From positions 682,001 to 746,000 of the forward strand of contig NZ_JAFEWD010000002.1 in NCBI RefSeq assembly GCF_017355855.1: a stretch of DNA of 64,000 bases, written 5' to 3'. Position 1 is the stretch's first letter, and every line of letters begins with the position of its first letter. The position numbers and the translations under genes are program-made. Shown here piece after piece: positions 2 through 19,535 of this stretch. Under the pieces are notes generated by a model, which was given only the letters and a program-made list of their open reading frames with translations, was not told where the DNA came from and did not search any database. Source of the stretch: Pedobacter sp. SYSU D00535 (GTDB lineage Bacteria > Bacteroidota > Bacteroidia > Sphingobacteriales > Sphingobacteriaceae).

Positions 2-118
2 TATATCAAAAGAAACAAGATCCCAAAGTTTCAAGAAGGTCGGTATGTGTACGTGCCGAAAAAGATGATCGATTCATTAGCAATTAAAAAATCTCCTCTT
101 TCAACCTCAAAGTCATGA
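2..118 (+). CDS. Helix-turn-helix (excisionase-like) protein, C-terminal end only
   Basis: An open frame enters from the left edge and stops at 116-118. The visible 38 residues read as the wing of a HTH_17/MerR-like excisionase domain: the segment YIKRNKIPKFQEGRYVYV followed by a PKKMIDSL helix. Small proteins of this kind commonly precede tyrosine recombinases in Bacteroidota integrative elements and act as recombination directionality factors or regulators. The stop overlaps the integrase start in an ATGA arrangement, so the two are probably translationally coupled. The start lies outside the window. The family assignment rests on one half of the domain only. Confidence 0.6.
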   Translation, partial: YIKRNKIPKFQEGRYVYVPKKMIDSLAIKKSPLSTSKS

Positions 119-2607: not shown

Positions 2608-2693
2608 ATATTATCTAAGTGTGAATTGAAAAGACGTGAGAGTAAGGTTAATCCTGTTAAAGCTTGAAGTTGTGTAGTTTGTAGCCACTTTTG

Positions 2694-3848: not shown

Positions 3849-3882
3849 TAAAACGACATCAATCACTGTTGCAGATTTTTTT

Positions 3883-3940
3883 CAAACCTACGCTGTTACG
3901 CTTTTTTAATGTTTAGAAAATTGGTGAAACCGTTTCAAAA
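3883..3940 (-). promoter_or_regulatory. Regulator operator plus TAnnTTTG promoter for GH105-GH43
   Basis: On the minus strand, TAGGTTTG (3890 to 3883) matches the Bacteroidota -7 consensus TAnnTTTG. Exactly 50 nt upstream begins a dyad of the form TTGAAA-N3-TTTCA followed by CCAATTTT. The palindrome TGAAAC-C-GTTTCA occupies 3925-3937. The same arrangement with the same 50-nt spacing occurs before susC and before the second pectate lyase. No good -33 TTG is present, which fits an activator-dependent promoter. Confidence 0.75.
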
Positions 3941-4052
3941 TTTGACAAGGGTGCGGTAACGTATTTAATATTCAAGTTGCAGAAACTGTCTGGCGCTGCG
4001 TATTAATTAACCCTTATAGGCATTGGGTTCTACAGGGGAGATAAGTTATCAC

Positions 4053-4400
4053 TTACGGCATCCAAGTATTGGTTTGATTATCATCGCTGATTGCAAAAAG
4101 CAATTCTTTGGAGCACAGTTTAATATTAAGACTAATAATGTTAGAGGCGGCTGGAGAATTGCAGTAGAGAGATAGTTTGCAATCAGTAGTGTCTAACCTA
4201 GTTTCATTGACGTTTTGCGTTCCGCACATTTCGTTTACAAAGCGCGATAAGAAGAATTCCACTTCTTCTACCTGTCTTGCCGTTTCAAAAATTTCTACAG
4301 GTATTTTCTTACAATATAATCGGTAAACAGTTATTAAAATCGCTTTCGCGTCAGTATTTGAAAGATTTTCACCAGAATTTAAAAGTCCGCCGATCAGCAA
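4053..4400 (-). CDS. Hypothetical protein, doubtful
   Basis: A 115-residue open frame on the minus strand with a TTG start, inside the 846-bp gap between the divergent GH105 and pectate lyase genes. The composition is protein-like (a helical stretch VEIFETARQVEEVEFFL), but there is no recognised domain, signal peptide or ribosome-binding site. The rest of the gap (3941-4052, 4401-4694) shows no further gene. A TATTTTTG box at 4486-4493 could serve the lyase downstream. This may be a genuine small gene or a chance frame. Confidence 0.25.
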   Translation of the reverse strand: MLIGGLLNSGENLSNTDAKAILITVYRLYCKKIPVEIFETARQVEEVEFFLSRFVNEMCGTQNVNETRLDTTDCKLSLYCNSPAASNIISLNIKLCSKELLFAISDDNQTNTWMP

Positions 4401-4694
4401 ATCTCCAACTTTACACTCAATCTAATCAACATCCCTTGTTGAAAATATAATAATTGGTTAAGTGAGCCAGCCCCATGCTGGTTCATATTTTTGGCTTGGG
4501 ACAGAACTAACAGTAAAACTTACGAAAGGAGTGTATGGGCAAATTTTAGAACATATAGCACGCGATGCTGACTGCATGCGACTGCTTTTAGAGTGAAACT
4601 CTGCTTTAATAAACGAGCTAGATGACCGAACGCGAATCGGTAGTATAGTTGGCAAAAGTAGATTAACAAGCAAAACCAAAAACTTAAATATAAA

Positions 4695-7600
4695 ATGAAA
4701 AAACACCTACTATTTTTAATTATCATGTGCTTTTCAGGACTTCTCCTAAATGCACAGCAACTTGCTTTTCCCGGAGCTGAAGGCTTCGGTCGTTTTGCGA
4801 CCGGAGGGCGAAATGGCTCGGTTTATCACGTAACAAATCTTAATGATTCAGGCCCCGGATCTTTGCGTGATGCTGTAAGTAAGTCTAATAGAATTGTCGT
4901 TTTTGACGTTTCCGGAGTTATTAAGATAGCAAGTCGTATTTCCGTTGCTTCTAACCTCACAATAGCAGGACAAACAGCTCCTGGAGAAGGGATTACGGTC
5001 TATGGTAACGGAATGTCCTTTTCTGGAGCTTCTAATACAATCTGCCGGTATATACGTATACGAATGGGGGTAAACGGCGAATCAGGGAAAGACGCAGTTT
5101 CGATTGCAGGAGGGACGGATATGATCTTCGATCATGTGTCCGTATCTTGGGGAAGGGACGAAAATTTTTCAATAAGTGGTGACGGTAGTCCTTTGGGAAG
5201 AATTACCATACAAAATTCTATTATTTCGCAGGGCTTACAAACTCATTCGGCTGGTGGATTGATTCAGACAAATGGAGGAGTAACGCTGTTTCGAAATCTC
5301 TACATCGACAATAAAACACGTAATCCTAAAGTAAAAGGGCTTAACCAGTTTGTTAATAATATAGTATATAACTGGGGTAACGGCGGCGGATATATACTTG
5401 GTGATTCTCAGGGCTCTTCCTGGGCAACAATCGTAAACAATTATTTTATTGAAGGTCCAGGCTACAATTACGATGGGGGAAAGGTAACTCCTACAGCACC
5501 TTACACTCGTGCCAATGAATATTTTCAGCTTTATGCAGCGGGCAACTTCCTTGATAATAATAATAACGGCACACTTGACGGAACTGAAAGTGTAAAGGCA
5601 GATTATGGACCTGCCACATGGATAACTGATGCTTCTTCGGGATGGACTTCTATTCCAGAGCTTCATCCTGTTATCCTGTCGCAAACCTCGGCAGAGGATG
5701 CTTATAATTACATTGTTCAACATGCTGGAGCATCTCTGCCTGTCCGAGATCCTGTTGATTCTATCTTGATGCGTGAATTAACGTCTCTAGGAACACAAGG
5801 GAAAATGATCAACAATGAGACCTCGCTTGGGCTACCCAAAAACGTAGGGAATATCTTTAATGCCCCAAAAGCTTCGGACGCTGATAATGACGGTATGCCA
5901 GATAGTTGGGAAAATGCCAATGGTACAAACGCAAATGCGGACGATGCAATGATTATTGGACCTGATGGATATGCCAATATTGAGCGCTATATAAATAGTA
6001 TTAATTCTTCAATAACTTTCCTAAAATATCCGGTTAACCTCAGTATCTCGCTTTCTAACCCAACTACCGCAGTATTAAAGTGGACAAATGTAGAAACTAA
6101 TGCTAAGCAAATTATCCTGGAAAAGTCTACTGACAGAGTTAATTATACTGCTGTGTCTACGTTTGCTGCCGATGCAACCACTGCTACATTAACAGTTACG
6201 GCCGACGCTCCGTGTTACTTCAGATTAAAAACCGCGGATGATACGCGCCAGTCATCATATTCAGAAACGGTGAAGATCTACGATGACGTGACAAAAGCCG
6301 GAGGAGGTACACTCAAGGGAACAAAAATCTTTACTCCACAAGAGGGAAAATATTACCGTATAATTAATTACGGGAGTGTCGCCTTCAATTCTGGTGCGAA
6401 TTTTTCGGGCGTCGCAAAATATCTAAACGTTACCCAGGATAATTTAATTGGGTCTACAGCAACGTTTGTATGGGATAATCCTACCCTGTTATGGGAAATT
6501 ACCGACGATGGCAGAGGTAAAGGTACTTATATTATCAAGAATGTTGGAACAGGGAAGTATTTTGGAAACGTCTCCAACAATAATACCACAGCAGTAGTCA
6601 ACGAACCCAACGGTGGTTACAGCGTAATTTTTGGACTAAATCAATATCCAGCTCAAGCTGGTGTTGCTGATTCGGTCTCCTTTTTCAGAATACATAACGG
6701 AAGTAATCAATTGCGTCCACGCTCGTTTGGCGCTCAATGGTTCTGGTCCGGTGGCAGCACGAATCGGGCAGATATGCTTTATACTTTTGTACCGGTAAGT
6801 AAGGAGGCTGTTTCACTTTATCTCGGAGGCTTAAGAAACCTGATTGCTCAAGCTACTAGTCTGGCAAACGAGGCTCAACCAGGGTCAGATGTTTTACAAT
6901 ATCCTCCAGATGCTATTGCTGTTTTAAATCAGGAAATTGCAGCAGCACAGGCTTTTGTTGATGCTGTCGACTATTCTTCAACCCTACAGCCGGAGGTGGA
7001 TAATGCCGTACTGGCCCTGCAAAGTGCAGTCAACAATTTCATTGCTGCGCAAATTCGTACATTTGCCAATCATAATCCCCAAAAACTTTATAACATTTTT
7101 AGTTACGGTACAAATTCCGGATCTGGTACAACTAGCGCATCTGCTTCAACCGCAAGACGTTATCTGGTTGCTATTCCTAATTATAACAGTACAAAGGATT
7201 CTCTGGTCTACATCATCGGTAAAAGTGATAATGATATCAAGGCAGGAGCTGTTGATGTACTTCAAAAACAGAAAAATGCGCAATGGATTATAGCTGAATC
7301 GGAAGCTAATCCAGGATTTTTTATTGTAAAAAACAAAGCGCGGGGGACATATTTAGCAATTGATAATTATTTGTCAGCTTCCCCGGTCGAAATCTATCCG
7401 TATTACCAGAAAGAAGATAACGGAAAACATGCATATTCTTTACAAGTATCGGATTTGAATACGAAGTGTTTTAATGTTGGAAATGTTGATGCGACAGGAA
7501 AGGGCGGTCCGCTTGCGTTTAGCACTCCCGCTGACAGGACCCGGTTGAGGTGGATATTCGATGAGACTGATGTTGCAGATGATGTTGCTCCTGACGTAAT

Positions 7601-9047
7601 CACAAAGAATATCAGTATAGCTTTAAATGAAAACGGAACGGCTACTATTAATCCCTCTCAAATTGACGGAGGGTCGAGCGATAATGTAGGAATAGTTTCA
7701 ATGACTCTGGACAAAACAACTTTCGATTGTTCTAATATTGGCGCTAACACTGTACTTCTTACAGTAGCAGACGCCGAGAATAATGTGTCGTCTAAAACCG
7801 CAATTGTAACTGTTCGCGACAGCATTGCACCGGTGCAAGTACAACTTCCGGATGTTACAGGCGAATGCTCTGCCGCCGTAACCGATATTCCAACAACTAC
7901 CGACGGATGTGCCGGAACTATCACGGGAACAACCATCGATTCTCTTACTTACAGCACTCAAGGAACACATGTTATAACATGGAGATTTGATGATGGAAAT
8001 GGAAATGTTACTACAGCTACTCAAAATGTAATAGTGAAAGATACGACCCCTCCTGTAGCACTAGCCAAAGATATCAACGTAACATTGGTAAATGGTTCAG
8101 CTACAATCGCGGCTTCAGCTATCGATAATGGAAGTAACGATGCGTGTGGTCTAAAATCATTAACAATTGATAGAATGCATTTCGATTGCTCAAACACTGG
8201 TAACAATACAGTTGTGCTTACGGTTACTGATGTGAACGGAAACGTTTCTTCAACACCGGCTACTGTAAATGTCATTGGCGTTACTCCGGTAGTTAAAATC
8301 GGTGTTTCCAGAACAGATGAAACATTTACTGGTCTTGACAACAAAACTATCGCTTTAGGTTATGGCGCACAAAGTTTAATACTTACTGCGTCAGACACCA
8401 CTTCTGCAAATGGCTCTACAAGGTATAACTGGTCACCTGCAACAGGATTAAGTGATACAAACAGCCCTAATCCGGTGTTTACTCCAACTGCTGCTGGCAG
8501 CTATACATTTAATGTACTTGCTACTAACGAATTCGGATGCACTTCAAGCGCCGCTGTTACCATTACAGTTATCGACGTACGCAGTGGAAATAAAGGTAAT
8601 AAAGTGTTGGTTTGCCACAAAACAGGCAGCAAGTCTAATCCATGGACACAAGTCAGCATAGGCTACAACGCAGTTGCAGAACACTTGAGCAAAGGTAGTT
8701 ATTTAGGTGCTTGTACATCTCCAGCAGCGGCAAAAGTTGCTGCCATTGAAACCTCTGAACTTAGTCTTAATACTCTTAATGTAAGTAGCATTAACACCTT
8801 ATCTGCGTATCCGAATCCATTTAAAACACAGACAAGGGTTGTATTTAGGTTACTTTCGGATCATCCAAACGTCTCACTGGACCTATACGGTCTGAAAGGA
8901 AAGGTGAAAAACATCTACTCGGGCCCTGTAAAAGCACATCAAGAGTACTCATTTAATTATGATACCGCTATTGCTCCTGGAGTTTATTTTTTCTTGCTAA
9001 GCGGTTCTAAACTGGCCTTAAGTTTTAAAGTTATCGTATCGCAATAA
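4695..9047 (+). CDS. Giant type IX-secreted pectate lyase (PL1-like), multidomain
   Basis: A 1450-residue protein with a signal peptide (1-20) and a right-handed beta-helix pectate lyase domain (about 22-390). Lyase motifs are FPGAEGFGRFATGGR, FDHVSVSWGRD and TRNPKVKG (equivalent of the RxPxxR catalytic region). A calcium-type DADNDGMPDSWE motif lies near residue 396. Downstream are a fibronectin-III-like domain (about 445-540), two modules with lectin-like GKYYRI / KLYNIF openings flanking a helical FIVAR-like segment (about 710-780), Ig/HYR-like repeats (about 970-1190), a VCHKTGS cysteine module and a C-terminal sorting domain (about 1370-1450, YPNPF...PGVYFF). It would cut alpha-1,4-polygalacturonate by beta-elimination at the cell surface, delivered by the type IX secretion system. 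The size is well beyond a plain PL1 enzyme. Confidence 0.9.
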   Translation: MKKHLLFLIIMCFSGLLLNAQQLAFPGAEGFGRFATGGRNGSVYHVTNLNDSGPGSLRDAVSKSNRIVVFDVSGVIKIASRISVASNLTIAGQTAPGEGITVYGNGMSFSGASNTICRYIRIRMGVNGESGKDAVSIAGGTDMIFDHVSVSWGRDENFSISGDGSPLGRITIQNSIISQGLQTHSAGGLIQTNGGVTLFRNLYIDNKTRNPKVKGLNQFVNNIVYNWGNGGGYILGDSQGSSWATIVNNYFIEGPGYNYDGGKVTPTAPYTRANEYFQLYAAGNFLDNNNNGTLDGTESVKADYGPATWITDASSGWTSIPELHPVILSQTSAEDAYNYIVQHAGASLPVRDPVDSILMRELTSLGTQGKMINNETSLGLPKNVGNIFNAPKASDADNDGMPDSWENANGTNANADDAMIIGPDGYANIERYINSINSSITFLKYPVNLSISLSNPTTAVLKWTNVETNAKQIILEKSTDRVNYTAVSTFAADATTATLTVTADAPCYFRLKTADDTRQSSYSETVKIYDDVTKAGGGTLKGTKIFTPQEGKYYRIINYGSVAFNSGANFSGVAKYLNVTQDNLIGSTATFVWDNPTLLWEITDDGRGKGTYIIKNVGTGKYFGNVSNNNTTAVVNEPNGGYSVIFGLNQYPAQAGVADSVSFFRIHNGSNQLRPRSFGAQWFWSGGSTNRADMLYTFVPVSKEAVSLYLGGLRNLIAQATSLANEAQPGSDVLQYPPDAIAVLNQEIAAAQAFVDAVDYSSTLQPEVDNAVLALQSAVNNFIAAQIRTFANHNPQKLYNIFSYGTNSGSGTTSASASTARRYLVAIPNYNSTKDSLVYIIGKSDNDIKAGAVDVLQKQKNAQWIIAESEANPGFFIVKNKARGTYLAIDNYLSASPVEIYPYYQKEDNGKHAYSLQVSDLNTKCFNVGNVDATGKGGPLAFSTPADRTRLRWIFDETDVADDVAPDVITKNISIALNENGTATINPSQIDGGSSDNVGIVSMTLDKTTFDCSNIGANTVLLTVADAENNVSSKTAIVTVRDSIAPVQVQLPDVTGECSAAVTDIPTTTDGCAGTITGTTIDSLTYSTQGTHVITWRFDDGNGNVTTATQNVIVKDTTPPVALAKDINVTLVNGSATIAASAIDNGSNDACGLKSLTIDRMHFDCSNTGNNTVVLTVTDVNGNVSSTPATVNVIGVTPVVKIGVSRTDETFTGLDNKTIALGYGAQSLILTASDTTSANGSTRYNWSPATGLSDTNSPNPVFTPTAAGSYTFNVLATNEFGCTSSAAVTITVIDVRSGNKGNKVLVCHKTGSKSNPWTQVSIGYNAVAEHLSKGSYLGACTSPAAAKVAAIETSELSLNTLNVSSINTLSAYPNPFKTQTRVVFRLLSDHPNVSLDLYGLKGKVKNIYSGPVKAHQEYSFNYDTAIAPGVYFFLLSGSKLALSFKVIVSQ

Positions 9048-9262
9048 GTTGGGCTTATAAAAAATCGCTTAATGTTTGAAACAAGGGAACTGCCTTCATT
9101 AAGAATGACATTGACTTTATGTTACAGCATAAGGAGGGGGCTTTAGGAATAGCTCTTGAATTTCTTTCCTACAAGCGTTAGATGAAAAGCAAACTGTTCT
9201 GGTGCCTGGATTAGTCTTTTAAAATAGTGTTACAAATACTTTTCAAAAGGAATTCTGTCAAA

Positions 9263-9320
9263 TATTGAAAGTCTTTCATCAAATTTTTAAACTTAAAAAT
9301 CTCGCGACGGCGTAGGTTTG
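9263..9320 (+). promoter_or_regulatory. Regulator operator plus TAnnTTTG promoter for susC
   Basis: TAGGTTTG at 9313-9320 matches the Bacteroidota -7 box. Exactly 50 nt upstream, TATTGAAAG-TC-TTTCATCAAATTT gives the dyad TTGAAA-N3-TTTCA plus CAAATTT tail shared with the GH105 and second lyase promoters. Similarity to the GH105 site extends without gaps over about 66 nt, from TGTCAAAT to GTAGGTTTGA. The transcript would have a leader of roughly 195 nt before the susC ATG. Confidence 0.78.
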
Positions 9321-9421
9321 AGATATGGAAAGCGCAATTATTTTGTCTTGCGCAGTTCTCTAATTATCATTCTGGAAATCATTTTAATTACTGGCTGGGC
9401 CAGGTTGGTGTAGGGCGAGAA

Positions 9422-9456
9422 ATCCATGACTCCACCCGTAAGGGAGAGTCGTGGAT
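9422..9456 (+). promoter_or_regulatory. Hairpin in the susC leader
   Basis: ATCCATGACTC (9422-9432) pairs with GAGTCGTGGAT (9446-9456) with one wobble and a 13-nt loop. It lies in the 477-bp gap before susC, downstream of the predicted promoter, so it would sit in the 5' leader about 70 nt before the start codon. It lacks a U-run and may be a stabilising or regulatory leader element. The remainder of the gap (9048-9262) shows nothing convincing. Confidence 0.45.
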
Positions 9457-9524
9457 ATTCTTTACCGCTGAATTATCGCAACTTTTTATAGACCATTAAT
9501 ACGTTTTTTATTAACAAACTAATT

Positions 9525-12500
9525 ATGAACGAAGAATTAAAAAAGCTCTCATTAAGAATGTCCTCGCTTTTGATATTGCTCTGTTTGTGCTGGCAAACAA
9601 CAGTAGCGCAAAGCCAAAAGCGGGTTTCAGGAACGGTAGCTGCTGCCAACGGCGAGCCAATTATCGGTGCTGCAGTTAAAGTAGTTGGCGAACAATCAGG
9701 TGCGACAACAGATGTAAATGGAAAGTTTTCCTTAGACGTCAAGCCTAGCGCCGTGTTAGAAGTTAGTTATTTGGGTTTCGAAACCCAAAGGGTCAATGTG
9801 GGCGAACACACTTCGATAAATATTATCTTAAAAGAAAATACCAAGACCTTGGATGAGGTTGTTGTTATTGGCTATGGGGTAGCGAGAAAGAAAGACCTGA
9901 CCGGCTCGACAGTCTCTATAAAAGGGTCGGAAATTGCAAATATCCCGGTGACAAGTGCGGCACAGGCAATAACCGGTAAACTTGCAGGTGTTAATGTGGT
10001 AACACAAAGTGGCGCACCGGGAGCTCCTGTTAATATAACAATACGTGGTGGTACCTCAATCACTCAAAGTACTACGCCATTGTATATTGTTGATGGTTTT
10101 CAGATGGATAATGCCCTGAAGAATATCGACATTAACGATATCGAGTCTATAGATGTAATGAAGGATGCATCAGCTACAGCTATATATGGTGCACGTGGCT
10201 CAAACGGAGTAGTAATTATAACTACTAAATCTGCTAAAACGGGTAAAAGTCAGGTTTCTTACAACGGTTATGCAAGTTTTGAACGACTTAGCGAAAAGAT
10301 AGACGTTATGAGTCCGGAAGAATACGTAAGGCACCAATACGAATTCCTGATGTTGCGTGGAACTCCAATGGATCAATTTACCAAGAATTTCGGTGGAGGT
10401 AATTCACAAGACCCCGCATTCTATACCGGAGCGTCTCAATACATCCATGACACCTATTCTCAAACTCAGGGGATAGACTGGCAGGATATTGTTTTTGGAG
10501 GTTCGTCGCTGCTTCAGAATCATAATGTAAGTGTTTCGGGAGGAACCAACAAGACAGGCTTTATTTTAAGCTATAACAATGTTGGGCAGCAGGGTATTCT
10601 TGATAAGCACGGTTATGGTAAGAATAACGTAAGGGCAAAAATAAACCATACTGTAAATGATCGGATTCGTGTAGACTTCAACTCAAACTACAACAATACA
10701 AAGTTAGAGGGAGGTGGATCTTTAGGTGGCCGTTTAAGGATGACGCTTATGGCGCCTGTTACGGGAGGAACACGCTTTACCAATGATCAAATGATCAATA
10801 CGGATGATTTCTATAATAGCATATTGACTGATGTAGGAACCTATAACGTTTATAATCCAATACTTTTAAACAATGCTACTTCTTCTAAACAACTCACCAG
10901 ACAATATATGGGAAATGCGGGAGTAGATATTAATATCTTAAAAAACCTGACTTTCCGAACAGCAGGAAGCTATTTTTGGCAGCAAGAAAGATCGGAATCT
11001 TGGGAAGATGAAACAACTCAGGGAGCAATAGCGAATCACGGTGGCCGTCCTTTTGGATCCAGAAATAATAGCGAAGAATATTCCTGGCAGATCACCAATA
11101 CCCTTAATTGGAAACAGACTTTTGGAAAGCATAACATAAATGCACTTCTTGGGCAAGAGGCCTACAACTCTCAATCCATGTACTTGAACAATAGTTATGA
11201 TAATTTCAATCAGGTAAATTTCGGTTTAAATAATCTCGACGGAACGCTGGTGTATGACAAGTCATCAGGTTTATCGAATTACCGGATTACCTCAGTGTTT
11301 GGCCGTGCACTATATAATTATAATGAAAGGTACTTGCTAACGGCTTCTCTAAGGGGTGATGGAGTGTCTAAATTTGCTAAAGGAAAGCAATGGGGGCTTT
11401 TGCCTTCTGCTTCAGCAGCATGGCGAATCACAGAAGAAAGCTTCATGAAAAACAATACCTTTTTCGATCAGCTAAAACTGAGGGTTGGTTACGGCGTCAC
11501 TGGGAATTGTGATATCGATGACTATATGTATACTACTGCTTACGGATCGAATGTCTATGCTGTTAACAACACAAATCCAGTAGGGCTGGCGCCAGGTAGC
11601 AGACTAGGCAATCGGGAGCTAGTTTGGGAAAAGACGAAATCTGCAAACCTTGGACTGGACATTTCCATACTTAAAGGCAGAGTAAGCCTAACCGCGGAAC
11701 GCTACAGAAATGTATCTGATAACCTATTGTTAGAAGTTGCTATTCCAAAAAGTACAGGCTATTCTACCCAGTATCAAAATATCGCATCTATTCGCAATCA
11801 AGGTTTTGAGTTCGTTCTTAATACAAGAAATATTGTTCATAAAGCTTTCACCTGGACAACAGACTATAATATGTCGTTTAACCGGTCCAAAGTGTTGAAG
11901 CTATACGGCACGGATACAAAGAGAATGCCTCCGGGTACTTTTCTTGTAGAGGAAGGAAGTCCACTGGGCCAGTTTTTTGGATATAAATATGATGGCGTTT
12001 ACACAACGGACGACTTTGTGCAAAATGCAAATGGCTCTTATACATTAAAAGACGCGGTTGCAAGAGCTAAAGCTCCGGGAGGTACAATAAAACCGGGAGA
12101 TTTGAAGTACGTGCCTACTGCAGGAGAAGTTGATGCGAACGGTAACCCTGTCTGGACTGCTAACGACCGCACAGTTATCGGCAGCGCATTACCAAAATTC
12201 ACCGGTGGTATGGTTAATACCTTTGCCTATAAAGGATTTGATTTAAGTGTATTTGTGAATTTTAGTTATGGAAACCAGGTTATGAATGCCAACAAACAAA
12301 GCTTTATGGGTCCCAATATGGCTTTTACAAGTTCATTCTATCCAATGGCAAACCGTTTTGTTCTGATAGATCCAGCAACTGGCAGAGAAACCACGGACTT
12401 GCAACGTCTGGCAGCCTTAAATCCTAATCAATACGCAAAAGATGCAGTTTGGAGCTTGCAATCAAGAAATCAGAACGCCTTAACCGAAACTTCGGATTAC

Positions 12501-12755
12501 TATCTTGAAGATGGCTCATTCCTTCGCATTAATACCGTTACCCTTGGCTATTCCCTTCCTTCAATGGTGTTAAAGAGAGTAGGATTAAAAACAACAAGGA
12601 TGTATTTCACCCTTAACAATCCCTATGTCTTTACCAACTATTCAGGATACGATCCGGAAGTATCAAACTCAAGCAAAGGGTTTGAGCAAGGTGTCGACAG
12701 CTCTGCTTACCCTCGTTCCAAGAGCTTCGTATTCGGTTTGAACTTGACATTTTAA
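9525..12755 (+). CDS. susC: SusC/RagA-family TonB-dependent outer-membrane transporter
   Basis: A 1076-residue SusC-like porin, the usual family length. After a signal peptide (MNEELKKLSLRMSSLL... to AQSQ, about 1-30) comes a carboxypeptidase-regulatory-like domain (VSGTVAAANGEPIIGAAV, about 34-110). Next is the family signature LDEVVVIGYG leading to a plug domain (about 125-235, IRGGTSITQSTTPLYIVDG and GSNGVVIITTKS), then a 22-strand barrel ending in FVFGLNLTF with a terminal aromatic. With the SusD partner 20 nt downstream it forms the TonB-driven importer for pectic oligosaccharides. It is transcribed from the operator-bearing promoter at 9263-9320. Confidence 0.95.
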   Translation: MNEELKKLSLRMSSLLILLCLCWQTTVAQSQKRVSGTVAAANGEPIIGAAVKVVGEQSGATTDVNGKFSLDVKPSAVLEVSYLGFETQRVNVGEHTSINIILKENTKTLDEVVVIGYGVARKKDLTGSTVSIKGSEIANIPVTSAAQAITGKLAGVNVVTQSGAPGAPVNITIRGGTSITQSTTPLYIVDGFQMDNALKNIDINDIESIDVMKDASATAIYGARGSNGVVIITTKSAKTGKSQVSYNGYASFERLSEKIDVMSPEEYVRHQYEFLMLRGTPMDQFTKNFGGGNSQDPAFYTGASQYIHDTYSQTQGIDWQDIVFGGSSLLQNHNVSVSGGTNKTGFILSYNNVGQQGILDKHGYGKNNVRAKINHTVNDRIRVDFNSNYNNTKLEGGGSLGGRLRMTLMAPVTGGTRFTNDQMINTDDFYNSILTDVGTYNVYNPILLNNATSSKQLTRQYMGNAGVDINILKNLTFRTAGSYFWQQERSESWEDETTQGAIANHGGRPFGSRNNSEEYSWQITNTLNWKQTFGKHNINALLGQEAYNSQSMYLNNSYDNFNQVNFGLNNLDGTLVYDKSSGLSNYRITSVFGRALYNYNERYLLTASLRGDGVSKFAKGKQWGLLPSASAAWRITEESFMKNNTFFDQLKLRVGYGVTGNCDIDDYMYTTAYGSNVYAVNNTNPVGLAPGSRLGNRELVWEKTKSANLGLDISILKGRVSLTAERYRNVSDNLLLEVAIPKSTGYSTQYQNIASIRNQGFEFVLNTRNIVHKAFTWTTDYNMSFNRSKVLKLYGTDTKRMPPGTFLVEEGSPLGQFFGYKYDGVYTTDDFVQNANGSYTLKDAVARAKAPGGTIKPGDLKYVPTAGEVDANGNPVWTANDRTVIGSALPKFTGGMVNTFAYKGFDLSVFVNFSYGNQVMNANKQSFMGPNMAFTSSFYPMANRFVLIDPATGRETTDLQRLAALNPNQYAKDAVWSLQSRNQNALTETSDYYLEDGSFLRINTVTLGYSLPSMVLKRVGLKTTRMYFTLNNPYVFTNYSGYDPEVSNSSKGFEQGVDSSAYPRSKSFVFGLNLTF

Positions 12756-12775
12756 ACGTATAAAAAGAGCAAAAG

Positions 12776-14623
12776 ATGAAAAATCTATTATACAAAGGAC
12801 TTTTGATTTTGTCCATCATCGCTGTTTCCTCCTGTAAGAAAGATTGGCTTTCTATTCCTTCGCCAACAAAATTGGATGACGAAACCGTGTTCAAAAATTT
12901 AAATGCTGTGGATATGGCTGTTTTAGGTATATATCCCAGTACTTTCCACCAGGAATTATATTACAATTTAACCGCTAATTCAGATGAGGTAATAACAACT
13001 GAAAACAACAATAGCAAGACAAGGCTGGCAACCTACAACTATACGCCTTCGGAGAGTCCCAGTGGGCTATATACGACGGCATATAGAGCAATCGAGATGG
13101 CGAACCTGGTACTGAAAAAGCTACCTCCTTATACTCCGAAAGATGCCAAAGAGGAAAAAAAGAAAAATATGCTATTAGGAGAGTGCTATGCCATCAGAGC
13201 GATGTCCTACCTAAATATAGTTCGTCATTTTGGAGATGTTCCTTATACTAATATTCCTACGGAGGATGCTAAATCCTATTCCTCAGGGAGGGTTTCCAGA
13301 GATTCCATCTACGATAGATCTATTCAAGATTTACAAAAAGCTGTAGAGTTATTGCCATGGCAAAGTGAGGGGATGATTCAGACTCCTGAACGCTTCTCAA
13401 AAAATGCCGCCTATGGTATTTTAGCAAGAACAGCTTTATATGCTGCAGGGTATTCCTTACGTTGGGATTTAAATACTTATTCTCCTTCATCATTGCAGTT
13501 AGCGCAAAGACCCGATCAAAACCGGATACAGGAGCTTTATAAAATAGCCTCGGATGCTTGTGAGGAGGTTATCAAAAGGGGCGAAAACCGTCTTCTTCCA
13601 AAGTTTGAGACTGTTTTTAGAGATCTCGTAAACGGTAGATACAATGCGGAGTCGATGCTTGAGCACGGCCAATTTGGTAATGACTTTAATAGCAGCGCTA
13701 TCGGCTACACAAACGGGATAGCTATTTTAAGAGGGAACGTAAACTTTGGAAGATCATTCCCGCTGCAAGGCGCAATGCCAACGCTTTGGTTTGACTATGA
13801 TGCACAAGATACAAGACGAGGCGTGACAATTGCCAACTTCGGATTAACCAGCACTAATGAACGCTGGCTAAATCCTTATTCTATGATGGGAATTGGTAAG
13901 TTTCGTGTGGTTTGGAAAGCAGACAAAGGGGTAGCTGATAACAAACGTAATATCAACTGGATATTTCTACGTTATTCCGATGTTCTGCTTATGTATGCAG
14001 AAGCTCAAAATGAACTAAATAATGGCCCGACAACTGCAGCGATCAATGCCTTTAAAGAGGTAAGAAAGCGGGCATTCAATGGCGATGAAACTAAGATTGG
14101 AGTCATTCCGACTAGCTACCAGGAATTTAAAAACGCTATTATAGAAGAGCGTAAATTGGAATTAGCATTTGAAGGTTGGAGAAAGACTGACTTGGTACGA
14201 TGGGGCATTTTTTATGAAAAGCTTACGGAAACCCAGGCGAAGTTACAACAGCTTGCGAGAAGAGAAGCCGGCTCTAAATATGCGAATGTTCCTCGGTACG
14301 CTGCGTATAAGGTGGGTACAGTTAGTTTTGAAGACCCAGTTGTAGAAATTGTACCTAATTATACCTACATGACCCAGCCTAGTTCAACTGAAAGAACGAG
14401 ATTAACAACAGAAGGTTATAAGTTAGTCAATTTAGATGGTGATGCTGTAAATACTGGTGCAACCAGGTTCAACTTTTTCGACACAAGCAACGGGCAGCTT
14501 TCTGCTTGGGTAACTAGTGTGTTCAGTGGACTACGTAAAAATCAGTCCGAATTACACCCTTTAGGTATCAGTAAAATTAATGAAAATCCAGGATTAACAG
14601 GTCAGGAACTACCGGGTTACTAG
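12776..14623 (+). CDS. susD: SusD/RagB-family surface glycan-binding lipoprotein
   Basis: A 615-residue SusD-like protein. A lipoprotein signal ends at SSC with C20 as the acylation site. The N-terminal TPR-rich region and the family C-terminal stretch (IIEERKLELAFEGWRKTDLVRWG) are clear. It follows SusC after 20 nt and is certainly co-transcribed. SusD acts as the surface lid that captures oligosaccharides and passes them to SusC. A hairpin at 14670-14706 follows the stop. Confidence 0.94.
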   Translation: MKNLLYKGLLILSIIAVSSCKKDWLSIPSPTKLDDETVFKNLNAVDMAVLGIYPSTFHQELYYNLTANSDEVITTENNNSKTRLATYNYTPSESPSGLYTTAYRAIEMANLVLKKLPPYTPKDAKEEKKKNMLLGECYAIRAMSYLNIVRHFGDVPYTNIPTEDAKSYSSGRVSRDSIYDRSIQDLQKAVELLPWQSEGMIQTPERFSKNAAYGILARTALYAAGYSLRWDLNTYSPSSLQLAQRPDQNRIQELYKIASDACEEVIKRGENRLLPKFETVFRDLVNGRYNAESMLEHGQFGNDFNSSAIGYTNGIAILRGNVNFGRSFPLQGAMPTLWFDYDAQDTRRGVTIANFGLTSTNERWLNPYSMMGIGKFRVVWKADKGVADNKRNINWIFLRYSDVLLMYAEAQNELNNGPTTAAINAFKEVRKRAFNGDETKIGVIPTSYQEFKNAIIEERKLELAFEGWRKTDLVRWGIFYEKLTETQAKLQQLARREAGSKYANVPRYAAYKVGTVSFEDPVVEIVPNYTYMTQPSSTERTRLTTEGYKLVNLDGDAVNTGATRFNFFDTSNGQLSAWVTSVFSGLRKNQSELHPLGISKINENPGLTGQELPGY

Positions 14624-14669
14624 AAACTATATCCGCAGGAAAAAAATTGAAAGCTTTTCTCTTAAAAGT

Positions 14670-14706
14670 GCAGCCGGACGATCTCTTCGTTCTGGCTGCC
14701 TTAATA
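14670..14706 (+). terminator. Terminator-like hairpin after susD
   Basis: GCAGCCGGACGA pairs with TCGTTCTGGCTGC across a short loop (14670-14699), with a GU pair and a one-base bulge. It is followed by a weak U-rich tail. It sits 47 nt past susD in the 317-bp gap before the next gene and plausibly ends or attenuates the susCD transcript. Nothing else notable is seen in 14707-14940. Confidence 0.55.
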
Positions 14707-14940
14707 TTCTGGTAACTTCTCTAATTTTTTCAAGATCTTACTTTAATAGCTTGCGTGCAGGGAAACACGTACATGTTTTGATTGATAGCCTTATCCGAAG
14801 GATGCGACAAATACCTTCATCAAGTCGCCTCCTTCTAACATTTATAGATGTCTCTCGGAATGCAATATAGAAAACCAGCAAACAATAGTTTCTAACCCGG
14901 TAGTAGAAGCTATAACCCAACTTAAATAATACATGTTTAT

Positions 14941-17088
14941 ATGAACGTAGGTAAAATCATCATCAGTAGTGCGCTGTATTTAATAGCAGTCCTGGCACAG
15001 ACAAACGCCCAACCTATAAACCGGCAGGACGTTGTGCAAAGGCATACGATTCTGAATACAAGGATAGATTCTCTGGAATCATTATCAGTAGGAAATGGAA
15101 AATTTGCATTTACAGTAGATGCTACAGGACTACAGACTTTTCCCGAACGTTACGCAAAAGGTGTTAGTTTGGGTACTCAGTCCGAATGGGGATGGAACCG
15201 GTTGAAAGATACTGTTGGATATAAATTTGAAGAAACGTTCAAAGAGTTTACGTTCAATGGAAAGAAAGGTAGCTATAGCATGCAGTCCTCCGAGCCTTTA
15301 AGAAAACGAAGGGCGGCCGATTGGTTTCGCAAAAGTGTACATCGCATCCAACTGGGTAATCTCGGCTTCGACATTCATAAAAAAAATGGCCGTTTGATTA
15401 CTCCCTCTGATGTGAAGAACATCCATCAGACATTAAATATGTGGACCGGCGAAATTACAAGTCGTTTTACGGTTGAAAATGTACCCGTGGAGGTTGTTAC
15501 CGTTGCTCATCAGGAGCTGGATCTTGTAGCGGTTAAAGTTAAAACGCCGTTGTTGCAGGCGGGAAGATTGAAAATCAGAGTACGTTATCCTTATCCTACT
15601 ATAGGGTTTTTGGATGAGGGCGTAAATTACAATAGTAACGAAAAACATTTTTCATCTGTCGATGCCCAAAGTGAAACCGGTGCAGTGTTAATACATAAAC
15701 TGGAAGGAATTACTTATTTCAATGAGTTGAAATGGAATGGGAAAGCATCTGTTGCTCAGACCTCGACTCCGCACTATTTTCAGATAACTCCCGATAAGGG
15801 AAGTGATTCTTTTGAGCTTAACTGCCTGTTTTCGCAACAAACTCCAGGAAATTCAGATTTGCCAGATTTCGAAGAATGCAGGAATAATAGTAGCAACCTT
15901 CTTAAATCCTTCTGGATGAGCGGAGCGGCAATAGACTTCGCTGGAAGCACTGATCCACGTGCTAAAGAACTGGAAAGGAGAGTAGTAACTTCACAGTATT
16001 TAACAAAGATTCAGTGTGCAGGCTCGTTTCCTCCACAGGAAACTGGTTTAACCTTTAATAGCTGGTTTGGAAAGCCCCATTTGGAAATGCATTGGTGGCA
16101 TGCTGTTCACTTTGCTTTATGGGGAAGACCGGAATATCTGCAAAAGAGTCTCGATTGGTATTTTGAAGCTGAAGATGGAGCGAAGAAAATCGCAGCCAGA
16201 CAAGGTTTTAAAGGTGTTCGGTGGCAAAAGATGACTGACCACGAAGGGCTGGAAAGCCCCTCGTCTGTAGGTGCATTTATATTGTGGCAGCAACCTCATC
16301 CTATTTATATGGCTGAATTGCTTTACCGCGATAATCTTAGTAAAGATGTGCTGGAGAAATACAAAGACATCGTTTTTCAAACGGCAGAGTTTATGGCTTC
16401 TTTCCCTGCTTATGATAGTGTTAAACATCGCTATAACTTAGGCAAAGGGTTAATTCCGGCCCAGGAAGTTTTCAGAGCAGTAGATACTTATAACCCAACT
16501 TACGAGTTGGCTTACTGGGATTGGGCTCTTCGGGTGGCCCAAAAATGGCGTGAGCGGTTGGGAATGCCTCGAAATGCAGAGTGGGACAATGTAATTACGA
16601 AGCTGGCACCACTGCCCGTATCTAAGGGAGTGTATCTGTCAACAGAGAATAATCTAGACTCGTTCACTAACCAGGAATGGCTACGTGATCACCCATCTGT
16701 TTTGGGTGCTTTAGGCATGGTACCTGCATCTCCTAAATTAGACAAGGCTATCATGCAAAGGACCTTTGATACTGTTTGGAAGGTTTGGCAATGGGATGAT
16801 ACTTGGGGATGGGATTTTCCGATGGCTGCTATGACAGCTGCACGACTTGGAAATCCTGAAAAGGCCATTGACGCCCTGTTTATGAACATTAAAACCAATA
16901 CCTATTTGAAAAACGGACACAATTATCAGGACGGTCGCTTAAGAATTTATCTACCTGGTAACGGAGGTGTCTTAACTACTGTTGCTATGCTTGCTGCCGG
17001 CTGGGATGGTACCGTCGGGCCAAATCCAGGTTTCCCTAAGAATGGTAAATGGAAGGTGAAGTCAGAAGGATTTAAGAGGATGCCATAG
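14941..17088 (+). CDS. Predicted glycoside hydrolase, six-hairpin type, family unassigned
   Basis: A 715-residue exported protein (signal peptide about 1-23, ending TNAQ). The N-terminal region with SLSVGNGKFAFTVDATGLQ resembles the beta-sandwich of six-hairpin glycosidases (as in GH65/GH95-like enzymes). The C-terminal half is helical and tryptophan-rich, consistent with an (alpha/alpha)6 barrel, with motifs such as HLEMHWWHAVHFALWGR, WDDTWGWDFPMAAMTAARL and LPGNGGVLTTVAMLAAGW. I do not recognise a numbered GH family. Its place directly after susCD in a pectin locus argues for action on a pectic side chain. The substrate and catalytic residues are unknown to me. Confidence 0.7.
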   Translation: MNVGKIIISSALYLIAVLAQTNAQPINRQDVVQRHTILNTRIDSLESLSVGNGKFAFTVDATGLQTFPERYAKGVSLGTQSEWGWNRLKDTVGYKFEETFKEFTFNGKKGSYSMQSSEPLRKRRAADWFRKSVHRIQLGNLGFDIHKKNGRLITPSDVKNIHQTLNMWTGEITSRFTVENVPVEVVTVAHQELDLVAVKVKTPLLQAGRLKIRVRYPYPTIGFLDEGVNYNSNEKHFSSVDAQSETGAVLIHKLEGITYFNELKWNGKASVAQTSTPHYFQITPDKGSDSFELNCLFSQQTPGNSDLPDFEECRNNSSNLLKSFWMSGAAIDFAGSTDPRAKELERRVVTSQYLTKIQCAGSFPPQETGLTFNSWFGKPHLEMHWWHAVHFALWGRPEYLQKSLDWYFEAEDGAKKIAARQGFKGVRWQKMTDHEGLESPSSVGAFILWQQPHPIYMAELLYRDNLSKDVLEKYKDIVFQTAEFMASFPAYDSVKHRYNLGKGLIPAQEVFRAVDTYNPTYELAYWDWALRVAQKWRERLGMPRNAEWDNVITKLAPLPVSKGVYLSTENNLDSFTNQEWLRDHPSVLGALGMVPASPKLDKAIMQRTFDTVWKVWQWDDTWGWDFPMAAMTAARLGNPEKAIDALFMNIKTNTYLKNGHNYQDGRLRIYLPGNGGVLTTVAMLAAGWDGTVGPNPGFPKNGKWKVKSEGFKRMP

Positions 17089-17154
17089 CCTGCAAGATTC
17101 TGATGTACAGGCACATACAACATAACAACTTATAACTACATAAAAGTCCAGGCA

Positions 17155-17318
17155 GATAGTATTGCTATCGCCTCAATTATAAATTGTTTCCAAGCTAGTG
17201 CAAAGCAAGTATTCTATATGGAACGACTATACCTGAATGGTTCAGCTAAATTAAGCGTACTGTCATAAGTAAGCTGGGTAGATACTATCGGATCACCGAT
17301 TTTAGTATTGGAAACAAT
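17155..17318. repeat. Two interlocked inverted repeats in intergenic gap
   Basis: GATAGTAT (17155-17162) is the exact reverse complement of ATACTATC (17282-17289). ATTGTTTCCAA (17183-17193) is the exact reverse complement of TTGGAAACAAT (17308-17318). The pairs cross rather than nest, with offsets of 127 and 125 nt. They lie in the 425-bp gap before the second pectate lyase, upstream of its operator. They may be a relic of a small mobile or regulatory element. Confidence 0.35.
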
Positions 17319-17430
17319 AGTTCTGTCTTACTTACTAAAGCTATATAAGCCTATCAAGGTTGTTTTGTCCATAATTCAGTTGGCCCAATGCGAGATGAGA
17401 AATACCTCTTCATACATCCAAAATAACAAT

Positions 17431-17488
17431 TATTTAAAGTTTTTCGTCAAATTTCAAAAGTGCTGGCGACCACTAACCAATAGGTTTG
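17431..17488 (+). promoter_or_regulatory. Regulator operator plus TAnnTTTG promoter for second pectate lyase
   Basis: TAGGTTTG at 17481-17488 is preceded at exactly 50 nt by TATTTAAAG-TT-TTTCGTCAAATTT, the third copy of the dyad found before GH105 and susC. The left half-site carries one substitution (TTTAAA for TTGAAA). The -7 box is 26 nt before the lyase start codon, so the leader would be very short. Confidence 0.72.
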
Positions 17489-17513: not shown

Positions 17514-19535
17514 ATGAGGAAAACTAGGATTAATCAATTTTTAGTTGCATTTAGAAGTTTAGGAATGCAAAGTCGTCATTTCGCCCTTGGAGGTGCAATA
17601 CTATTAAGTACACAGGTACTCGGCCAACAGTTAGCCTTTCCATCAGCGGAAGGTTTTGGCCGTTTTGCTACTGGTGGACGAGGCGGTACAGTGTATAAGG
17701 TTACTAACCTGAATGACTCCGGGCCTGGCTCATTTCGCGATGCTGTGAGTCAGCCTAATCGAACCGTTGTTTTTACAGTAGGAGGTATAATAAGAATCAG
17801 TACCCGTATTGTTGTCCAGAAGAACGTAACGATTGCGGGTCAGACAGCACCGGGTGATGGCATCATGATCTATGGCAATGGTCTTTCCTTTACAAATGCA
17901 GATAATAGTATCGTAAGGTACATTCGTATCAGAATGGGTATTAATGGAAGTGATGGTAAAGATGCAATTGCTATTGCGAATGGTAAAAATATGATTTTCG
18001 ACCATGTATCAGTATCCTGGGGAAGGGATGGGACATTAGATGTTAGTGCTGCTACAGGAGACGAAGTTGGTGATATGACGTTTCAAAACTGTATCATCGC
18101 ACAGGGGCTTCAAGGGCACTCAACCGGAGGCTTGTTACAGTCGGATGCTGGTATAAGTATTCTTAGAAGTTTATATATTGATAATAACTCCAGAAACCCA
18201 AAGGTGAAGGGTATAAACCAGTTTGTAAATAACGTCATTTATAACTGGGTAGCTTCAGCGTATATATTGGGCGATTCGGACGGTCCTTCAGCAGCTAATG
18301 TTACCAACAATTATTTTATCAACGGCCCCGAGACCTCTACTTCTGCGTTTAGTCGTGGAAATACCAATTTCAGTATTTATGCTGCAAATAATTACCAGGA
18401 TTCTAATAAAGATGGGGTATTAAATGGTAGCGTTATACCTCAATCGGGCTACGGAACTGTAACCTGGAAAACTACTCCTTTTGATTATCCCGTTGTTACG
18501 GAACTAACGCCACAAGCAGCGTTGAATTATGTTATTGCAAATGCAGGGTGCAATAAAAAAAGAGATAAAACAGATGCAAGACTAATTACAGAGCTTCAGT
18601 CGTATGGAACAATAGGCCAGACTATCAGTGATGAGAATAACGCTCCGATGAATGGGGTGGGTACTTTAAATAGTGGGTCTGCTCCATATGATTCTGACAA
18701 TGATGGAATGCCGGATTCATGGGAATCTGCAAATGGCACGAACATAAATGTTGCAGATAATAACGGAGACCTTGATGCTGATGGATATACGAATCTTGAG
18801 GAATATCTTAATTCTTTGACTGGCGGAGATTCTGCAACAGGCACAAGCATTACTATTCAGGAGAATTCAACCGGCTTTTGTAGTGTTCAGGGAACTATTG
18901 ACTCTAATCATTCTGGATTTACAGGCAGCGGTTTTGCAAATACTAACAATGTAGCAAATAGAGGTATAGTATGGCGAATCAACGTGCCGCAAGCAGGGCT
19001 TTATACGTTAACCTGGCGCCAGGCAAATGGCGCGGGAGATAATAGAGTAGCAAGACTGCTAGTTAATGGATCTGAAGTCCTTGAAAATATAAGTTTCCCC
19101 ACTACTGGTAGTTGGACAACATGGAAAGATGTTTCGGTTACTCGTCTGTTAGGAGCAGGGCAAAACACGGTCAGATTGGAAAGTACTACCGCAAGTGGAC
19201 TTTCTAATATTGATTATCTTAAAGTGACAGGAAATAACCCTGGTGTTTTAAGTTGCTCCGGAGCTACTGTTATGGACGTAAAAGTTAACGAGCTATCACT
19301 AATAGAACAAAAGAATAGTAGTTCAATAATTTATCCAAATCCATCTACAGATAAATTCACAATTAGATCAGCCGACAGATTTAGCTACTTTGTTTTTGAT
19401 CAGTTAGGTAAAGAGCTGGAAAGAGGAGAGGCTAAAGAACAAGTTTCTACGGGAAGTAATCTTGCTTCAGGCATTTACTTTATTAAAATAGTAAAGGCTT
19501 CGGGAGTAGAGACTCTGAAGTGTATCAAGCAATAG
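17514..19535 (+). CDS. Type IX-secreted pectate lyase (PL1-like) with carbohydrate-binding module
   Basis: A 673-residue lyase closely related to the catalytic domain of the 1450-residue enzyme at 4695. It shares FPSAEGFGRFATGGR, FDHVSVSWGRD, SRNPKVKG and a DSDNDGMPDSWE calcium-type motif near residue 392. A CBM6/35-like beta-sandwich (about 445-575, ending SNIDYLKVTG) and a C-terminal type IX sorting domain (about 605-673, IYPNPS...SGIYFIKI) follow. The N-terminus is long before the hydrophobic signal (about 25-42). The gene has its own operator-bearing promoter. The two lyases look like an ancient duplication with different accessory domains. Confidence 0.9.
   Translation: MRKTRINQFLVAFRSLGMQSRHFALGGAILLSTQVLGQQLAFPSAEGFGRFATGGRGGTVYKVTNLNDSGPGSFRDAVSQPNRTVVFTVGGIIRISTRIVVQKNVTIAGQTAPGDGIMIYGNGLSFTNADNSIVRYIRIRMGINGSDGKDAIAIANGKNMIFDHVSVSWGRDGTLDVSAATGDEVGDMTFQNCIIAQGLQGHSTGGLLQSDAGISILRSLYIDNNSRNPKVKGINQFVNNVIYNWVASAYILGDSDGPSAANVTNNYFINGPETSTSAFSRGNTNFSIYAANNYQDSNKDGVLNGSVIPQSGYGTVTWKTTPFDYPVVTELTPQAALNYVIANAGCNKKRDKTDARLITELQSYGTIGQTISDENNAPMNGVGTLNSGSAPYDSDNDGMPDSWESANGTNINVADNNGDLDADGYTNLEEYLNSLTGGDSATGTSITIQENSTGFCSVQGTIDSNHSGFTGSGFANTNNVANRGIVWRINVPQAGLYTLTWRQANGAGDNRVARLLVNGSEVLENISFPTTGSWTTWKDVSVTRLLGAGQNTVRLESTTASGLSNIDYLKVTGNNPGVLSCSGATVMDVKVNELSLIEQKNSSSIIYPNPSTDKFTIRSADRFSYFVFDQLGKELERGEAKEQVSTGSNLASGIYFIKIVKASGVETLKCIKQ

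What the first reader, a model, noticed from the sequence alone, without database searches (positions are those of the whole stretch)
3883..17488. Three promoters share a dyad operator exactly 50 nt from an identical TAGGTTTG box
Minus-strand 3940-3883 (GH105-GH43), 9263-9320 (susC) and 17431-17488 (second pectate lyase) align without gaps. TTGAAA-N3-TTTCA followed by CAAATTT starts exactly 50 nt before TAGGTTTG in each. The GH105 and susC copies keep similarity over about 66 nt. A usable -33 TTG is absent in all three, as expected for activator-dependent promoters. The hybrid two-component regulator at 19704 is the obvious activator. I infer a class-II-like activator architecture with a defined operator, a regulon code that may predict other target genes in the genome.
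Basis: partly seen in the sequence, partly recalled or inferred. Interest (0 to 1): 0.82.

Follow-up and report, generated by a model that had tools for sequence, protein, structure and literature searches.

The report
Pectin regulator's tandem operator, four promoters
Four promoters of a pectin-degradation gene cluster in a soil Bacteroidota carry the same tandem DNA element, very probably the docking site of the cluster's own sugar-sensing regulator: a clear new example of a known kind of switch rather than a new kind.

Summary
The three aligned promoters are real, but the element was misread. It is not a dyad. It is a 21-bp-period direct repeat of a 14-bp half-site, roughly GTCAAWTTTTNAAA, whose downstream copy ends 21 nt before the TAGGTTTG box. 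Such direct repeats are the published layout of hybrid two-component system (HTCS) operators in Bacteroides (PMC3878776). A relaxed consensus of the four sites matches nothing else in the 4.9-Mb genome. Across 301 family genomes the operator tracks this HTCS clade: 40 of 46 hits lie within 30 kb of one; in genomes not used to define the motif (window genome and D. arenae aside) 9 of 12 do. The HTCS at 19704 as activator and a class II-like geometry are well supported. A genome-wide regulon is not. No binding or transcription data were available.

The parts
3933..3946 (-). upstream half-site GTCAAATTTTGAAA of the GH105-GH43 promoter
3912..3925 (-). downstream half-site ACCAATTTTCTAAA of the GH105-GH43 promoter
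   Evidence: the D. arenae counterpart lies before GH43
3883..3890 (-). TAGGTTTG, sigma-A -7 box of the GH105-GH43 promoter
   Evidence: conserved in D. arenae
4371..4384 (+). downstream half-site ACCAGAATTTAAAA of the fourth site
4406..4413 (+). degenerate -7 box CAACTTTA at the standard spacing (CAATTTTG in D. arenae)
9257..9270 (+). upstream half-site GTCAAATATTGAAA of the susC promoter
9278..9291 (+). downstream half-site ATCAAATTTTTAAA of the susC promoter
9313..9320 (+). TAGGTTTG, -7 box of the susC promoter
17425..17438 (+). upstream half-site AACAATTATTTAAA of the second pectate lyase promoter
17446..17459 (+). downstream half-site GTCAAATTTCAAAA of the second pectate lyase promoter
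17481..17488 (+). TAGGTTTG, -7 box of the second pectate lyase promoter
19704..24053 (+). hybrid two-component regulator (propeller repeats, Y_Y_Y, HisKA, HATPase, receiver, AraC-type HTH), the proposed activator
1489..3866 (-). GH43 gene and GH88/GH105-family gene, target 1
4695..9047 (+). large PelZ-like pectate lyase gene with a T9SS tail match just under cut-off, target 2
9525..17088 (+). susC, susD and a third gene of unknown family (14941), target 3; that the third gene belongs to the same transcript is inferred from order
17514..19535 (+). second pectate lyase gene (PelZ-like, carbohydrate-binding module, T9SS tail), target 4

Best explanation
The element is the operator of the cluster's own HTCS. 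Two AraC-type HTH domains of a phosphorylated HTCS dimer bind two same-facing half-sites (roughly GTCAAWTTTTNAAA) 21 bp, two helical turns, apart. If the TAnnTTTG box lies at -12 to -5, the half-sites lie at -68 to -55 and -47 to -34. The downstream subunit is then placed against the -33 region, which has no TTG in the three reader promoters, so it can recruit sigma-A RNA polymerase directly (class II-like activation). A pectin fragment sensed in the periplasm would thereby switch on four transcription units: GH105-GH43, the large pectate lyase, susC-susD-14941, and the second pectate lyase. Shown by sequence: operator structure, spacing, conservation, and co-occurrence with the HTCS. Inferred: binding, phosphorylation, start sites, activation, operon extent and the inducing sugar.
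For: The HTCS has all expected domains. The window-derived half-site core, tested over lag and gap in 20 HTCS-homolog regions of other genomes (D. arenae included), peaks sharply: lag 21 with gap 27 or 28 holds 22 of 47 matches in 1683 cells. A matrix from 27 sites in 18 other genomes ranks the four window sites 1-4; the fourth had not been used or seen before. In 301 family genomes 40 of 46 operator hits (36 of 42 without the own genome) lie within 30 kb of an HTCS of this clade, about 0.13 expected. In genomes that did not help to define the motif, the own genome and D. arenae aside, 9 of 12 hits are near one (counted). 23 of 47 genomes with an HTCS of this clade have the operator, against 2 of 254 without. 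With the pattern fixed, 25 further genomes gave one with operators (three sites), the only one with an HTCS above 1500 bits. HTCS operators as direct repeats averaging 21 bp are published as predictions for 16 B. thetaiotaomicron HTCSs (PMC3878776, passages).
Against: No binding, footprint or start-site data. The fourth site has a poor -7 box. The 13 of 13 genomes with an HTCS of 1500 bits or more that hold the strict pattern are the own genome, D. arenae and 11 that helped to define it, and in one of them, G011, the strict hit lies away from the ortholog. At 1300-1500 bits only 5 of 12 genomes have it, at 1000-1300 4 of 12, below 1 of 10. One of 20 homolog regions, G102, gave no site at up to 3 mismatches. 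Six of 46 hits are not near a listed HTCS. Five of the 25 further genomes with a less similar or contig-end HTCS have no operator. Other HTCSs of the own genome show no such repeat. Lack of a -33 TTG is weak evidence, since that element could not be found in another Bacteroidota genus (PMC7366714 passage).
Confidence: 0.8

Rival explanations
1. The dyad TTGAAA-N3-TTTCA is itself the operator of a separate symmetric regulator (for example a LacI- or GntR-type repressor).
For: It is intact at three of the four window sites, and its three exact matches in the window are all at these sites. With a TAnnTTTG box 29-39 nt downstream it occurs in the genome only at GH105 and susC.
Against: 0 of 27 sites at related loci keep all five dyad pairs, while the direct repeat persists. 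The second pectate lyase site lacks it, and so does the D. arenae susC site in its last base.
Confidence: 0.06
2. The similarity is ancestry rather than function: promoter DNA copied between genes, with no dedicated regulator.
For: The two pectate lyase genes are paralogs (about 65% DNA identity over 700 bp), and GH105 and susC promoters share 53 of 78 columns.
Against: Elements are kept in D. arenae, at GH105 and the large pectate lyase with diverged flanks. They occur before different genes in other genera and track the HTCS.
Confidence: 0.05
3. The operator is HTCS-bound but by a paralogous HTCS elsewhere in the genome, or by several.
For: The nearest paralog found in the own genome has 55% identity in the DNA-binding domain, close to the 54-66% of homologs in other genera.
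Against: That paralog's neighbourhood has no strong operator (best score 9.5), and no fifth site is found in the genome.
Confidence: 0.07
4. An ECF sigma/anti-sigma pair drives the cluster, with the repeat as its promoter.
For: ECF pairs are one of the three known kinds of regulators of such clusters (PMC3878776, passage).
Against: The boxes fit the sigma-A -7 consensus, none of the fifteen proteins scanned between 115 and 34453 matched an ECF or anti-sigma family, and the repeat has HTCS geometry.
Confidence: 0.02

Closest known systems
HTCS_Rgu-1 operators of Bacteroides thetaiotaomicron (BT4111/BT4124, rhamnogalacturonan clusters; PMC3878776, passages)
   Same: AraC-type HTCS, pectin-related cluster, direct repeat of two 12-bp sites with a 9-bp spacer, that is a 21-bp period
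   Different: Half-site letters were not compared (they are in a supplement that was not readable here). The passages read give no distance to the TAnnTTTG box.
HTCS_Hep and HTCS_Man operators of B. thetaiotaomicron (PMC3878776, passages)
   Same: Direct-repeat layout and location before operons of the cluster; HTCS_Man sites are two 16-bp sites with a 5-bp spacer, again a 21-bp period
   Different: Different glycans; letters not compared
Class II AraC-family activation in proteobacteria (recalled)
   Same: Same-facing half-sites, the downstream one abutting the -35 region
   Different: Bacteroidota sigma-A box TAnnTTTG and no usable -33 element. The regulator is fused to its own membrane sensor kinase.

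Membership tests
HTCS regulator | periplasmic sensor, histidine kinase, receiver and AraC-type HTH in one chain | tested here: met
   Reg_prop, Y_Y_Y, HisKA, HATPase_c, Response_reg, HTH_18 in 1449 aa
HTCS operator | direct repeat of two sites about 21 bp apart | tested here: met
   lag 21 best; 8-11 of 14 positions equal in the four window sites
HTCS operator | located before susC and enzyme operons of the cluster that encodes the HTCS | tested here: met
   four sites before GH105-GH43, pectate lyase, susC, pectate lyase
HTCS operator | conserved with orthologous HTCS | tested here: met
   sites at up to 2 core mismatches in 18 of the 19 homolog regions other than D. arenae's; strict pattern in 13 of 13 close-homolog genomes, partly by construction, and weaker at lower similarity
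HTCS operator | bound by the phosphorylated HTCS | not testable with these tools
   needs gel shift or footprint
class II activator promoter | activator site overlapping or abutting the -35/-33 region | tested here: met
   downstream half-site -47 to -34 if the box is -12 to -5 (box position from PMC9723704 passage)
class II activator promoter | start site after the -7 box and dependence on the activator | not testable with these tools
   no transcript data
symmetric (dyad) operator | inverted repeat kept at related loci | tested here: not met
   0 of 27

The most novel reading that the evidence does not exclude
HTCS-controlled promoters of this lineage obey a rigid two-part ruler: two half-sites exactly 21 bp apart, then 27 or 28 nt from the YCAAWTT core to TAnnTTTG, with the HTCS replacing the -33 element. 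Regulator, operators and enzymes move together as one self-contained switch, here beside conjugation genes. If general, the ruler would let HTCS operators be read straight from raw Bacteroidota sequence and assigned to their regulator.
Probability: 0.35. Interest if true: 0.55.

Novelty: new member of a known kind. Interest (0 to 1): 0.4.

Why it matters
Many HTCSs have no known operator (20 of 36 in B. thetaiotaomicron in PMC3878776, passage), and the published ones are predictions from Bacteroides. Here the operator, its exact register to the promoter box and its regulator are tied together across a family of Bacteroidota by sequence alone. This gives a directly testable four-promoter regulon and a geometric rule for finding others. 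The result also corrects a natural misreading: the junction of two tandem half-sites can look like a palindrome.

Tried and rejected
Dyad as operator: rejected. A genome-wide regulon: rejected at this stringency. Two matches elsewhere to the two half-site cores (C3:80262 and C14:233186) are absent; I fetched them but did not study them further. Generalisation to the other HTCSs of the genome by self-similarity at lag 21: no enrichment (1 box at lag 21 in 454 kb, 0-3 at other lags; in the homolog regions the same test gave 31 at lag 21 and at most 5 elsewhere). So the ruler is not shown for unrelated HTCSs; this is the main result against the bold reading.

Two pattern searches failed through my own miscounted spacing and returned nothing; they were redone with the right spacing. 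One search stopped on an orientation check, was diagnosed and redone. Rfam gave no match in the window. The fold of the unknown protein 14941 was too poor to use (mean pLDDT 58) and was not searched.

Circularity to keep in mind. The 27 training sites were picked with the window-derived core, lag 21 and gap 27/28, so the ranking of the three known sites is partly built in; the fourth site is not. One row, G222 minus strand 32208, lies across a susC-like gene and was dropped. The consensus was written from the four window sites and its mismatch limit set so as to admit the weakest, so finding these four is built in; the information is that nothing else matched. The pattern was written from the training sites. 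Outside the 18 training genomes, the own genome and D. arenae, 12 hits fall in 9 genomes, 9 of them within 30 kb of a listed HTCS (my count). The association test treats related genomes as independent and includes the training genomes, so its p-value (2.5e-19) overstates the certainty. The HTCS list is one search's at 685 bits or more, where only the two best candidates per genome were scored. Of the 17 other Y_Y_Y matches in the own genome, I examined the neighbourhoods of 12, those with frames of 1360 aa or more; five shorter or weaker ones were left out, and one neighbourhood is cut by a contig end.

Full report
WHERE IT IS. The window lies on contig C11 of a 4.89-Mb genome. Its SusC is 97% identical to that of Desertivirga arenae, a Sphingobacteriaceae species. 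The related genome G031, listed as same genus, has a contig of the same length as the D. arenae record, so I call it D. arenae.

THE OBSERVATION. The three promoters align without gaps and share TAGGTTTG. The dyad is exact in two of the three, CAAATTT is exact in a different two, and the distance from the TTGAAA/TTTAAA start to the box is 48 nt, not 50. When I scored every lag from 10 to 32 for a motif shared by all three at the same columns, a direct repeat at 21 bp came first (11.9 against 10.3 for the next). Taken singly, the core pair, the one-mismatch dyad and the TAnnTTTG box are at about chance frequency in the window.

WHAT THE ELEMENT IS. Written as half-sites the four window sites are GTCAAATTTTGAAA/ACCAATTTTCTAAA (GH105), GTCAAATATTGAAA/ATCAAATTTTTAAA (susC), AACAATTATTTAAA/GTCAAATTTCAAAA (second pectate lyase) and GTCAGTATTTGAAA/ACCAGAATTTAAAA (the new site). 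I fetched regions of about 44 kb around 20 HTCS homologs (44-91% identity) in other genomes. With the window-derived core YCAAWTT, at most one mismatch in the two copies together, lags 8-40 and gaps 10-60 were counted. Of 47 matches in 1683 cells, 17 fell at lag 21 with gap 27 and 5 at lag 21 with gap 28; no other cell exceeded 3. In the two inverted arrangements the largest cells held 2 and 5. At up to two core mismatches, 18 of the 19 regions other than D. arenae's gave sites, 28 in all, of which 27 were kept; G102 gave none even at three. In those 27, the five dyad pairs are never all intact, while 7 to 14 of 14 direct-repeat positions agree.

A FOURTH SITE. A matrix built from those 27 sites in 18 genomes, none of them the window's genome or D. 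arenae, scores the window's susC site 35.1, second pectate lyase 31.7, a new site at 4346-4386 22.7, and GH105 21.9. The next place scores 10.6, and ten simulated windows peak at 16.2. The new site precedes the large pectate lyase gene. Its -7 box is degenerate (CAACTTTA) at the same spacing. D. arenae keeps the site, with CAATTTTG.

CONSERVATION IN D. ARENAE. All four elements have counterparts. No GH105 gene was found in the D. arenae region, and the counterpart of its operator, weaker in the upstream half-site but with TAGGTTTG, lies about 200 nt before GH43.

LINK TO THE HTCS. In the own genome a relaxed 35-column consensus of the four sites, with up to three mismatches, matches these four and nothing else; each appears twice because contigs C11 and C12 overlap (reversed control 1). 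In 301 genomes of the family, 25 hold the operator, with 46 hits. Of these, 40 are within 30 kb of an HTCS of this clade, against about 0.13 expected; without the own genome 36 of 42. By best HTCS score: 13 of 13 genomes at 1500 bits or more have it, 5 of 12 at 1300-1500, 4 of 12 at 1000-1300, 1 of 10 at 685-1000, and 2 of 254 without one. The 13 are the own genome, D. arenae and 11 that helped to define the motif, and in G011 the strict hit is not at the ortholog. Outside the defining genomes, the own genome and D. arenae, 9 of 12 hits in 9 genomes are near a listed HTCS (counted). With the pattern fixed, 25 further genomes (G301-G325) of one genus were searched. One, G303, has operators (three sites), and it is the only one with an HTCS above 1500 bits. 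G322, whose homolog (1470 bits) lies at a contig end, and G301, G304, G318 and G320, with HTCSs of 719-1027 bits, have none. Of the 27 sites, three precede a SusC of 54-74% identity and seven precede a pectate lyase homolog within 600 nt; the other 17 precede genes that my small query set did not name. Eleven neighbourhoods of twelve other HTCSs in the own genome hold no place scoring above 9.5.

HOW IT WORKS. The published position of the sigma-A box in a flavobacterium is -12 to -5 (PMC9723704, passages). The half-sites are then at -68 to -55 and -47 to -34. The downstream one abuts the -33 region, where 0 of 3 window promoters and 1 of 27 related ones have a TTG. This is the geometry expected of a class II activator (recalled). 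Gel shifts have been done with receiver-HTH proteins of two B. thetaiotaomicron HTCSs on susC/susD promoters (PMC11253607, passages). Binding, start sites and activation in this organism are inferred.

COMPARED WITH WHAT IS KNOWN. Ravcheev et al. 2013 (PMC3878776; passages) predicted operators for 16 HTCSs of B. thetaiotaomicron, all direct repeats with an average spacing of 21 bp, including one for rhamnogalacturonan clusters (12-bp sites, 9-bp spacer). The present element fits that class. I did not find a statement of the distance between HTCS operator and TAnnTTTG box in the passages I read or in the listings of searches. The library lacks most subscription papers, so this is no proof of absence.

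VERDICT. A real, well-conserved HTCS-type operator with its promoter register, a predicted regulon of four units in one cluster, and a corrected anatomy. It is a new member of a known kind. The bold extension, that the register is a general rule for HTCSs, is not supported by the other HTCSs of this genome and remains open.

Noticed in passing
window 115-1230 and 32348-58504: The cluster lies between a tyrosine recombinase and RteC, relaxase, TraG, TraM and coupling-protein genes. Homology with D. arenae covers only about 1510-29745, with no matches in a further 26 kb of D. arenae flank. It looks like cargo of a conjugative element of the CTnDOT type (label recalled); its ends were not sought.
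   Followed up: partly
G000 contig C11 start and contig C12 from 681135: The start of contig C11 and the end part of contig C12 match at 100% in the stretches compared (about 48 kb, 8 kb and 2 kb), with a shift of about 6 kb between the first and the last. Probably one locus assembled twice, so every operator is counted twice in genome scans.
   Followed up: partly
window 9325-9524: The susC leader of about 200 nt folds better than its shuffles (z -2.8; 1 of 200 as good), is highly similar in D. arenae, and has no Rfam match at gathering score. It contains a strong hairpin at about 9420-9458. In another genus the operator's box sits only 69 nt from susC.
   Followed up: partly
window 14941-17088: Protein of 715 aa with no Pfam match at 1e-5 and no solved relative at 1e-3, 51-59% identical in four other-genus pectin clusters. 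A weak match to kojibiose hydrolase and a beta-plus-helical layout in a poor model suggest a glycosidase of a helical-barrel kind.
   Followed up: partly
window 4695-9047 and 17514-19535: The two pectate lyase genes are paralogs, about 65% identical over 700 bp, each with its own operator.
   Followed up: no
G102:C12, G285:C11, G201:C1 and G161:C1: More distant HTCSs (34-39% identity) also have the operator within 10 kb, so the half-site seems shared by a wider HTCS clade.
   Followed up: partly
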